Shown here one piece after another: positions 1 to 21,278 of a stretch of DNA of 64,000 nucleotides. A program made the position numbers and the translations under genes. Positions within the stretch are counted from its first letter, which is position 1, and each line of letters starts with the position of its first letter. Below the pieces are notes generated by a model, which saw only the letters and a list, made by a program, of their open reading frames with translations, made no database searches and was not told where the DNA came from. Source of the stretch: Microbacterium thalassium (GTDB taxonomy: Bacteria; Actinomycetota; Actinomycetes; Actinomycetales; Microbacteriaceae); the NCBI RefSeq assembly GCF_014208045.1, contig NZ_JACHML010000001.1, positions 1,674,001 to 1,738,000 of the forward strand. The letters run 5' to 3'.

Positions 1-735
1 CGCGCCGAGCGCGTCGTGCGATCGGCCCTGCGCGGCGGCGGCCGGCTCACCCGCGCCGAACTGTTCGCTCTGCTGGACGGCGGGGGAGTGCCGACGCAGG
101 GTCAGCGCGGCTACCACGTGCTCACGAGCCTGTCGCTTCGCCGCGTCGTCGTTCAGGGTCCGGTGGTCGAGCGCGGGGGTGCGCTTTCGCGCGAGCAGCA
201 CATCGTGCTGTTCGACGACTGGACCGCGGATGCCGCCTCCCCCGACGATCCGGTCGCGGAGCTGTTCGCGCGCTACATCGCCGGACACGGCCCGGCGACC
301 GCGGCCGATTTCGCGTGGTGGGCGGCGCTGCCGATCGGCGCGGCGCGTCAGGCCGCCGAGGCGGCCGCGGACGCCGTCGAGCAGGTCCCGGGGGAGGGCG
401 AGCCGCGCTTCGTGTCGGCATCCGCTCCACCTCGCCGCTCCGCCGCGGCATCCCGTGTGATCGCCCTGCCGCCGTTCGACGAGTACTACCTCTCGTACGC
501 GGATCGCACGGGCGTCTGCGACGCAGAGCTGCTCGACCGGGTCGGGCCCGGGAAGAACGGCATGGTCGCTGCCGTCCTCCTCGCCGACGGCGACGTTGTC
601 GGCCGGTGGACGCATGCGGCCGCGCTCGCCGGTCGGCGCGACGAGCCGGCAGGCCGGCTGTTCGCGCCGGACGCCGCCACGCCGGACGAGGTCGACGCGG
701 CGCTCGCCCGGTATCGCGCATTCGTCACCGTCTGA
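1..735 (+). CDS. Winged-helix DNA-binding protein, AlkZ/YcaQ type (3' part)
   Basis: The reading frame is open from the first base of the window, so the 5' end lies outside; about 244 residues are visible. The composition and the C-terminal run (PPFDEYYLSYADR, later GRWTH) match the winged-helix family (HTH_42, formerly DUF1006) that includes the E. coli interstrand-crosslink glycosylase YcaQ/AlkZ. Known members unhook or excise alkylated bases, but many actinobacterial paralogues have not been tested. The N-terminal part with the QxQ/QxD catalytic motif is not visible, so glycosylase activity cannot be judged here. An internal GTG at 16 is unlikely to be the true start because family members are usually over 350 residues. 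The gene converges on the RamB-like regulator with a gap of about 20 nt. Confidence 0.75.
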   Translation, partial: RAERVVRSALRGGGRLTRAELFALLDGGGVPTQGQRGYHVLTSLSLRRVVVQGPVVERGGALSREQHIVLFDDWTADAASPDDPVAELFARYIAGHGPATAADFAWWAALPIGAARQAAEAAADAVEQVPGEGEPRFVSASAPPRRSAAASRVIALPPFDEYYLSYADRTGVCDAELLDRVGPGKNGMVAAVLLADGDVVGRWTHAAALAGRRDEPAGRLFAPDAATPDEVDAALARYRAFVTV

Positions 736-18942: not shown

Positions 18943-19020
18943 GTGCACGAACTCAGGCAGCGTCGCACGACACGCCGGGTGGGCGTGACCCCGCCCGCGT
19001 GTCTGCCTGAGTTCCGGCAC
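18943..19020. repeat. 78-nt hairpin repeat R1 upstream of the DUF559 gene
   Basis: The left arm gtgcacgaactcaggcag (18943-18960) pairs with the right arm at 19003-19020 at 16 of 18 positions. The 42-nt middle can fold further (ACACG...CGTGT with CGGGTGGG/CCCCGCCCG). A second element of exactly the same length, with an identical left arm, lies at 20098-20175 beyond the gene between them. Confidence 0.8.
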
Positions 19021-19083
19021 AGGTGGGTCTCCTCCCCAGGGGACCGGCGTCCGTGACTCATCCACCGGTGCAGGGCCGGTCGG

Positions 19084-20025
19084 GTGGCCCACCGCGACGA
19101 TGCCGAGGATCGCGGTGTGACTGAGGCGGACGATGATGCGAGCCGGGATGCCGCGGCCGGGCCGGGTGCCGCCTGTGCCGAGGCGGGCATCCGCGTGCGA
19201 TCGCGCGCGGAGCTTCTGGCGGAGTTCGGCCGCCGGGGACTCGCGCGCGCGGTCGCGCACGGCGACTGGATCCGCGCCCGGCAGGGTGCGTATCTGCCAG
19301 GAGACGCTCCGTCGGCCTTCGTGCGCGCGGTGCGCGTGGGCGGCAGACTCACGTGCCTGTCGCTGCTGCGGCACCACGGCGTTTTCGTGCAGTCCCGCGG
19401 GCCGATCCACATCCACCTGCCGCGCTCCATGAGTCGCATGCGCGACCCCGACTCGCGCCGCCGCAAGCTGGCGGGCCGATCGCGTCGGGCGCCCGTCCTG
19501 CACTGGCACCGCACGATCCGCCCTCTGCCGGATGACGGCGCAGCCGTCCATCCCGTCGACGCGCTCGCGCATGCTGTGCGGTGTCAGTCTCCCCGTGAGG
19601 CGATCGCCTCGATCGACAGCGCGCTCTTCACCGGATTCATCGCGGAGTCAGATCTGGGGGTGCTCTTCGAGGCGCTGCCGAGGAAGTACCGCGCGCTCCG
19701 ACCCCATATCGACGGTCGCGCGGAGTCGGGCCCCGAGACGCTGGTGCGGTTGATGCTCCGCGCCCTCGGCTGCACGGTGGAGCTGCAGGTGGAGTTCGTC
19801 GGCGTCGGGCGCGTCGACCTCGTCGCCGATGGCTGGCTGGTCATCGAGTGCGACAGCAGGCAGTTCCACTCGTCCTGGGAGGAGCAGCTGCGCGACCGGG
19901 CGCGCGACATCGAGCTCGCCGCGCAGGGGTTCTTGACGCTCCGGTTCACCGCGACGCAGATCATGCACCGCCCGCACGAGGTCGTCGACGCCCTGCGCGG
20001 CGTCCTCGCGGCCCGTCGTCTCTAG
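19084..20025 (+). CDS. DUF559 (Vsr-like) nuclease-fold protein with AbiEi-type N-terminus
   Basis: 313 residues. The N-terminal part (RSRAELLAEFGRRGLARAV, then RQGAYLPG) looks like the winged-helix start of AbiEi_4-type antitoxin proteins. The C-terminal part is a DUF559 domain of the Vsr/PD-(D/E)xK fold: VGRVDLVADG, VIECDSRQFH, RDRARDIELAAQG, LTLRFTATQI. The acidic pair D and E-x-D fits this nuclease fold, though activity of DUF559 proteins is largely unproven. An alternative GTG at 19117, preceded by GAGGAT six nt upstream, would remove 11 residues and fits the leaderless style of the genome. The gene is bracketed by two 78-nt hairpin repeats and followed by its own terminator-like stem. 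It does not belong to the neighbouring operons. Confidence 0.8.
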   Translation: MAHRDDAEDRGVTEADDDASRDAAAGPGAACAEAGIRVRSRAELLAEFGRRGLARAVAHGDWIRARQGAYLPGDAPSAFVRAVRVGGRLTCLSLLRHHGVFVQSRGPIHIHLPRSMSRMRDPDSRRRKLAGRSRRAPVLHWHRTIRPLPDDGAAVHPVDALAHAVRCQSPREAIASIDSALFTGFIAESDLGVLFEALPRKYRALRPHIDGRAESGPETLVRLMLRALGCTVELQVEFVGVGRVDLVADGWLVIECDSRQFHSSWEEQLRDRARDIELAAQGFLTLRFTATQIMHRPHEVVDALRGVLAARRL

Positions 20026-20052
20026 CGGCCGGTCGTCCCTAGCGGCCGTCGT

Positions 20053-20078
20053 CCGGAGCGGGCCGTGCCCCGCTCCGG
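20053..20078 (+). terminator. Hairpin after the DUF559 gene
   Basis: CCGGAGCGG and CCGCTCCGG form a perfect 9-bp stem with an 8-nt loop, 27 nt after the stop codon. It lies between the gene and the downstream repeat R2, with no T-run. Confidence 0.5.
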
Positions 20079-20097
20079 CCGCTGCCGCTTCGCCCGG

Positions 20098-20175
20098 GTG
20101 CACGAACTCAGGCAGTCGCACGCGGCGCGCCGAGGGTCGGCGGCGTGTCGTCCAGGACTGCCTGAATCCGTGCAC
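20098..20175. repeat. 78-nt hairpin repeat R2 downstream of the DUF559 gene
   Basis: The left arm gtgcacgaactcaggcag (20098-20115) is identical to that of R1 and in the same orientation. The right arm (20158-20175) pairs with it at 16 of 18 positions. The 42-nt middle begins TCGCACG as in R1 but has otherwise diverged. Confidence 0.8.
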
Positions 20176-20225
20176 GCGCGGTCGAGGCGGGAGCGACCCC
20201 GACCCCGGACGGGGCGGTGGGGCCT

Positions 20226-21278
<1,053 letters not shown>

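What the first reader, a model, noticed from the sequence alone, without database searches (positions are those of the whole stretch)
18943..20175. DUF559 nuclease-fold gene bracketed by two equal-length hairpin repeats
Seen: two 78-nt elements (18943-19020 and 20098-20175), each with an 18-nt left arm gtgcacgaactcaggcag identical between copies, a right arm pairing 16 of 18, and a 42-nt centre that has partly diverged (both keep TCGCACG). They face the same way and enclose one gene and its terminator-like stem. Known: DUF559 belongs to the Vsr/PD-(D/E)xK nuclease fold; REP palindromes paired around a dedicated nuclease gene (RAYT) occur in Proteobacteria. Inference: this may be an analogous unit in which a non-RAYT nuclease lives with, mobilises or is mobilised by its hairpins. 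The unit sits between otherwise ordinary housekeeping genes, as an insertion would.
Basis: partly seen in the sequence, partly recalled or inferred. Interest (0 to 1): 0.75.

Follow-up and report, generated by a model that had tools for sequence, protein, structure and literature searches.

The report
Nuclease gene with matching hairpin repeats
A DNA-cutting enzyme gene in Microbacterium and some related bacteria is often bracketed by hairpin-like repeats that match that particular enzyme and, in some genomes, also lie scattered elsewhere, resembling a known transposase-repeat partnership but built on an unrelated enzyme.

Summary
Observation confirmed, and it is general. Window 19084-20025 encodes an AbiEi-like module fused to a Vsr/DUF559-type nuclease, bracketed by two 78-nt inverted-repeat elements; the genome holds seven. 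In 60 Microbacterium loci such elements occur beside the gene at 0.93-1.08/kb versus 0.04/kb further away. Upstream and downstream arms match in 22 of 25 two-sided loci, paralogues in one genome differ, and arms track the nuclease (partial Mantel r 0.27, p 2e-4), not the host (r 0.04). Genomes with AACTCAGG arms at an examined nuclease have AACTCAGG elements elsewhere in 9 of 11 cases versus 5 of 39. Arm-to-arm lengths cluster at 62-65, 72-75 and 84-87 nt, about one helical turn apart, suggesting that both arms are read together on duplex DNA. It resembles RAYT/REPIN with a non-homologous enzyme. Movement by the nuclease is inferred; no clean target-site duplication was seen. No earlier description turned up in the searches listed.

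The parts
18943..19020 (.). Upstream inverted-repeat element E1 (78 nt; arms 18943-18960 and 19003-19020; AACTCAGG-to-CCTGAGTT core 18950-19013, 64 nt)
19084..20025 (+). Nuclease gene, 313 aa: AbiEi-like N-terminal module (about residues 39-210) and Vsr/DUF559-type nuclease domain (about 214-313)
   Evidence: Pfam; AlphaFold model pLDDT 87.1, pTM 0.83; fold comparison; E218 and H262 invariant, D245, E255, D257, D271 nearly so in 26 sequences
20098..20175 (.). Downstream inverted-repeat element E2 (78 nt; arms 20098-20115 and 20158-20175), same left arm as E1

Best explanation
The gene and its hairpins are two halves of one system. SHOWN: in this genus, and in some loci of other actinobacterial families, DUF559/AbiEi-type nuclease genes are bracketed by elements made of two inverted arms around a variable centre. 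The arms usually match on both sides of one gene, differ between paralogues, follow the nuclease and not the host, and recur elsewhere in some genomes. Arm-to-arm length comes in steps of about one helical turn. INFERRED: a dimer of the protein, through its AbiEi-like module, binds the two arms as a phased pair on duplex DNA, and its Vsr-like domain nicks there. At low rate this lets the element be copied to new intergenic places and keeps the flanking copies alike, while the nuclease gene itself stays put. That would be the logic of RAYT/REPIN, reached with an unrelated enzyme.
For: Strict hairpins: 28 in 30 kb upstream, 26 in 24 kb downstream, 15 in 362 kb far, 1 in 50 kb inside genes, over 60 loci, the top 60 non-own places of the listing. 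Up/down arms agree at >=12 of 14 in 22 of 25 two-sided loci, between-locus mean 9.6, 0 of 20000 permutations as good. Paralogues of one genome: cross scores 9-11 of 14 in all 12 comparisons, matched loci 13-14. Arms versus nuclease distance r 0.26 p 2e-4, versus trpS distance r 0.04 p 0.29, partial r 0.27 p 2e-4, 33 loci. Dispersed AACTCAGG elements: 28 of 149 genomes, reversed-pattern control 1 of 149, up to 23 in one genome; link to arms at examined nucleases 9 of 11 versus 5 of 39 genomes, Fisher 3.5e-5. Lengths: 80 of 80 listed AACTCAGG elements at 62-64, 72-75 or 84-86; other arm words 31 of 37 at 62-65, 72-75, 84-87; near-gene 43 of 47 in phase bins versus 12 of 22 far. In G065 and G028, closest by trpS, only 25 bp separate GNAT and trpS. 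dN/dS 0.09 between G050 and G140. Own copies E3-E7 lie between ORFs with coding-like composition.
Against: No cleavage, binding or movement was observed. Presence/absence cases show no clean target-site duplication, and one looks like decay rather than gain. 14 of 74 loci have no hairpin by the relaxed scan, though at least five of them (window, L132, L154, L086, L088) have an element by other scans; about 0.16 chance hits per locus are expected at the far rate. 3 of 25 two-sided loci do not match. The third own DUF559 gene has only an unmatched upstream candidate. G060 has 2 dispersed elements but no relative of the gene at E 1e-10; G069 has 8, but its one nuclease examined lacks those arms; five genomes without the motif at an examined nuclease have 1-2 copies, and two of the eleven with it (G073, G130) have none elsewhere. 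Centres fold only slightly better than shuffles (mean z -0.72 versus -0.09 for controls), so 'hairpin' may matter less than 'two inverted sites'. The correlation of arms with nuclease is modest.
Confidence: 0.55

Rival explanations
1. Regulatory or immunity sites: the AbiEi-like module uses the inverted arms as operators beside its own gene, and the nuclease is a defence or stress effector whose sites are spread by ordinary recombination; it does not mobilise them.
For: AbiEi of Streptococcus agalactiae binds inverted repeats (PMC7319586, start of abstract in the listing). The N-terminal half resembles AbiEi. Helical phasing of the arms fits a dimer on duplex DNA.
Against: Matched elements lie downstream of the gene too, up to 21 copies lie away from the examined nucleases of one genome, and local doubles are frequent. 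An operator alone does not need these.
Confidence: 0.27
2. Homing-like unit: the Vsr-type nuclease cuts alleles that lack the unit, for example the bare GNAT-trpS junction, and the whole gene with its elements is copied in; the elements are the ends of the unit.
Against: Does not explain solo elements elsewhere whose arms match the nuclease, or different arms at the same site. Remnants without the gene exist at the site (G112, G068).
Confidence: 0.12
3. Ordinary intergenic palindromes or terminators with no link to the nuclease.
For: Bacterial genomes hold many intergenic palindromes (general knowledge); the own genome has only seven copies.
Against: 23- to 26-fold enrichment beside the gene, matched arms, arm/nuclease correlation. 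Where the gene is missing at trpS, 1 of 16 recognisable intervals has a hairpin, with unrelated arms.
Confidence: 0.02

Closest known systems
RAYT / REPIN (REPtron)
   Same: Enzyme gene flanked by its own palindromic repeats; conserved arms as inverted doublets with a less conserved spacer; dispersed extragenic copies; tandem clusters; each enzyme with its own repeat type; vertically inherited gene (PMC3116915 abstract and passages; PMC8049555 passages).
   Different: Enzyme is a Vsr-like nuclease with an AbiEi-like module; no Y1 transposase family in Pfam up to E 1. No GTAG in the seven own elements. Arm spacing in helical steps suggests duplex rather than single-strand recognition. Seven copies in the own genome, 23 at most by one exact pattern, versus 430 REP doublets in P. 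fluorescens SBW25 (PMC3116915 passage).
Vsr endonuclease and Vsr-type homing endonuclease I-Bth0305I
   Different: Carries an AbiEi-like module and is paired with dispersed inverted-repeat elements; the gene is a free-standing ORF between GNAT and trpS.
AbiEi antitoxins (AbiE type IV toxin-antitoxin)
   Different: No toxin of the AbiEii kind among the neighbours tested in the window (GNAT, Fpg/Nei-type, trpS); fused to a nuclease.
CGTC REPs without a dedicated transposase (PMC3733652 passages)
   Same: Palindromic repeat families not flanking RAYTs; Caulobacter crescentus is listed with such repeats and also has a DUF559 protein, VsrA (PMC12907096 passage).
   Different: No link between those repeats and DUF559 was tested here; a lead only.

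Membership tests
RAYT/REPIN | HUH/Y1 tyrosine transposase domain | tested here: not met
   Pfam up to E 1 on 26 relatives lists 12 families, none a Y1 transposase; MTES_1575 in 25, DUF559 in 23. A sequence test only.
RAYT/REPIN | gene flanked by its own palindromic repeat type | tested here: met
RAYT/REPIN | dispersed extragenic copies as inverted doublets with variable spacer | tested here: met
   extragenic position checked for the five own off-locus copies only
RAYT/REPIN | GTAG tag at the REP foot | tested here: not met
   No GTAG or CTAC in any of the seven own elements; other genomes not counted
RAYT/REPIN | excision or transposition intermediates | not testable with these tools
   needs population sequencing
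Vsr endonuclease | Vsr-type nuclease fold | tested here: met
Vsr endonuclease | T:G mismatch nicking beside a cytosine methylase | not tested
   no assay; methylases not searched
EDxHD homing endonuclease | fold with conserved E, D, H, D | tested here: inconclusive
EDxHD homing endonuclease | cleaves the uninvaded allele | not testable with these tools
   needs enzyme assay
AbiE toxin-antitoxin | adjacent AbiEii nucleotidyltransferase toxin | tested here: not met
   Window neighbours are GNAT, Fpg/Nei-type and trpS; other loci not tested
Insertion sequence / MITE | target-site duplication | tested here: inconclusive
   Presence/absence alignments too diverged

The most novel reading that the evidence does not exclude
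A second, independent invention of the RAYT/REPIN arrangement: an AbiEi-Vsr fusion nuclease reads two inverted arms set a whole number of helical turns apart on duplex DNA and seeds copies of this element through the chromosome, each nuclease with its own arm code, across several actinobacterial families.
Probability: 0.45. Interest if true: 0.92.

Novelty: categorically new. Interest (0 to 1): 0.85.

Why it matters
If right, palindromic repeat populations kept by a dedicated enzyme are not peculiar to HUH transposases. It would give a role to many members of a family still called 'unknown function' in Pfam (relatives in 138 of 149 Microbacterium genomes searched), explain why these nucleases come with hairpins, and supply many naturally diverged nuclease/arm pairs for reading a recognition code. 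It also offers a candidate enzyme class to test for other palindromes that have no known transposase.

Tried and rejected
Insertion of the gene: rejected, conserved place beside trpS. Rfam match of the hairpins: none at E up to 1. Terminator: the scan lists none at the elements. Element as one long folded structure with paired centre: only weakly supported. Double elements as tandem repeats: TRF found only short repeats in 3 of 6 loci and none in 3, which does not exclude local duplication. PADLOC: best hit E 0.0017. Family PF18741 over the order listed mostly open frames above 1000 aa and was uninformative. Clean empty site with target duplication between G140, G050 and G051: not obtained. 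My guess of the G140 region orthologous to G050 C1:48681 (L193) was wrong.

Of 20 genomes taken because no near relative of the gene showed at trpS, 13 have a GNAT-trpS and 3 more an fpg-trpS interval; 4 lack both neighbours. One interval (G064) holds a hairpin, with unrelated arms, between two ORFs that look to me like an oxygenase and a TetR regulator. Five other hairpin hits lie inside fpg, GNAT or trpS. A profile of the family finds nothing in the 20 or in G112's trpS stretch at E 1; the same profile finds the gene in 7 of 7 control loci. The first run had no control; one search has. G112, looked at because one search put an element at its trpS site, has elements there without the gene, and G068 keeps a single arm; I read both as remnants.

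Foldseek 'pdb' was never run, so fold results come only from the VIA-align second look, in which the N-terminal half is little tested.

Literature, listings unless said otherwise: DUF559 14 papers, MTES_1575 4, RAYT+REPIN 18, 15 listed, further combinations, EDxHD and AbiEi. Passages read: PMC3710099, PMC12907096, PMC3733652, PMC8049555, PMC3116915 (also abstract). None described DUF559 genes with hairpins. The library lacks most subscription journals and bioRxiv proper.

Full report
What is there. The window lies at 1674001-1738000 of a 3.70-Mb single-contig genome. The two 78-nt elements and the 313-aa gene between them are real and exactly placed. Left are GNAT and Fpg/Nei-type genes, right is trpS. 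The genome carries seven such elements of 77-78 nt: E1 and E2 in the window, E3 1559112, E4 463281, E5 3319598, E6 1195745, E7 3316398. E3-E7 lie between ORFs with coding-like composition.

Association with hairpins. 138 of 149 genus genomes (own included) have relatives at E <= 1e-10. I took the top 60 listed places outside the own genome, so a sample biased to near relatives, with 3.5 kb on each side where the contig allowed. With 18-nt arms pairing at 16 or more and span 54-125, hairpins occur at 0.93/kb upstream, 1.08/kb downstream, 0.041/kb far and 0.02/kb inside the gene; 34 of 60 loci have one or more, 15 on both sides. With 14-nt arms pairing at 13 or more, 60 of 74 loci (the 60, three own genes, 11 of the 26 named-record loci) have one or more; near 1.09/kb, far 0.134/kb.

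Specificity. In 25 loci with elements on both sides, the arms of the two sides agree at 12 or more of 14 positions in 22 (three score 8-9); the between-locus mean is 9.6. In ten genomes with two or three nucleases bearing elements, all 12 cross-paralogue scores are 9-11 of 14; loci scored within themselves give 13-14, except G047 (9) and G062 (8). In the own genome, window and second DUF559 gene score 14 and 13 within and 10 across. Near trpS 38 loci (37 of the 60, and the window) could be compared, 33 with elements. Nuclease and trpS distances correlate (r 0.38); arms correlate with the nuclease (r 0.26, p 2e-4), not with trpS (r 0.04, p 0.29), and the partial correlation stays (0.27, p 2e-4). 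The effect is modest.

Dispersed copies. The exact pattern AACTCAGG-40..70-CCTGAGTT hits 28 of 149 genomes; the reversed control hits 1. Counts reach 23 (G085), 14 (G117), 12 (G140), 11 (G050), 10 (G144). Of 50 genomes with examined nuclease flanks, 9 of 11 with at least two motif copies there have off-locus elements versus 5 of 39 others. Of 13 further hit genomes I fetched listed nucleases of nine: G117 and G144 carry the same motif at the nuclease; G146, G077 and G121 show single or one-sided motif copies; G069, G075, G108 and G112 do not carry it at the nuclease fetched, G075 and G112 having AACTCCGGAGA arms. G041, G060, G079 and G134 were not checked; G060 has no relative of the gene at E 1e-10.

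Length steps. All 80 listed AACTCAGG elements (of 133 counted) have arm-to-arm length 62-64, 72-75 or 84-86; uniform lengths gave no such concentration at period 10.5 in 100000 draws, also after reducing to 32 genome-length pairs. The pattern's upper limit is 86, so longer classes could not be seen. Other arm words near nucleases, a separate set of 37, fall at 62-65, 72-75 or 84-87 in 31 cases; the rest are 66, 76, 78, 95, 100 and 106. The best period tried is 10.5 in the first set and 11-11.5 in the second. Near-gene elements lie in phase bins in 43 of 47 cases, far ones in 12 of 22; the bins cover 39% of the range. In 16 G085 elements the centre is only slightly more alike than shuffled, yet lengths are 75-76. 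I read this as two sites that must face the same side of duplex DNA; extruded hairpins alone would not need it.

Presence and absence. Of 20 genomes taken for lacking a near relative of the gene at trpS, 16 have a recognisable GNAT- or fpg-to-trpS interval; one holds a hairpin, with unrelated arms; a family profile finds no member in any of the 20 stretches, with 7 of 7 positive controls. In the two closest by trpS, G065 and G028, 25 bp separate GNAT and trpS. G112 (looked at separately) and G068 show remnants. Whether the unit was gained or lost is open. Orthologous elements in G140 and G050 mostly keep arms better than centres, though some centres are also well kept. One G140 element looks decayed in G050 and is missing in G051; one G050 element is missing in G051. 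No clean duplication was seen.

Range. In an order-level sample 116 of 198 genomes have a relative at E <= 1e-15. Of 27 such loci scanned (5 of the same genus), L257, L262, L271 and L272 outside the genus have up/down elements that match by eye, with unrelated arms; the L262 gene has an internal stop. An Actinomyces oris plasmid record has the gene between two 122-nt elements with identical arms; a Tsukamurella record has only an upstream candidate (slightly laxer scan). So the arrangement is wider than Microbacterium, not universal.

How it most likely works, and what it is not. See Best explanation. By architecture it works like RAYT/REPIN (PMC3116915 abstract and passages; PMC8049555 passages), but it is not a member: no Y1 domain was found and the seven own elements carry no GTAG. 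AbiEi of S. agalactiae binds inverted repeats (PMC7319586, start of abstract), which fits the N-terminal module reading the arms. In my judgement the association is near certain, action of the enzyme on the arms likely, copying by it about even.

Noticed in passing
window 20219-20286: Three head-to-tail copies of a ~20-nt GGGGCCTCAGACG-type unit across the 3' end of trpS.
   Followed up: no
G007, G018, G019, G037, G062, G080, G081, G120, G130, G138 (coordinates): Pairs of DUF559 paralogues facing each other 17.6-21.7 kb apart, one of each pair being the gene beside trpS.
   Followed up: no
L051 7399-10676 (G000 3316398-3319675): Elements E7 and E5 bracket a TetR-type and an MFS-type ORF (labels by eye) at 3.2 kb spacing, like a larger unit.
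   Followed up: no
window 18968-18977, L191 2005-2014, L315 1651-1772: Recurring centre motifs, CGACACGCCG or a CGGAATTCCGCGG-like stretch, in elements of different species and arms.
   Followed up: partly
L159, L172, L155, L175, L147, L167; G085, G050, G140: Elements often occur as local doubles about 150-460 nt apart, some nearly identical.
   Followed up: partly
L052 7867-8859: Third own DUF559 gene lacks a matched element pair.
   Followed up: partly
L309 1304-2127 (G121): DUF559 gene beside trpS is split over two frames, so apparently broken, while an element with CGTTCAC.ATTCAGGAAGA arms persists downstream.
   Followed up: no
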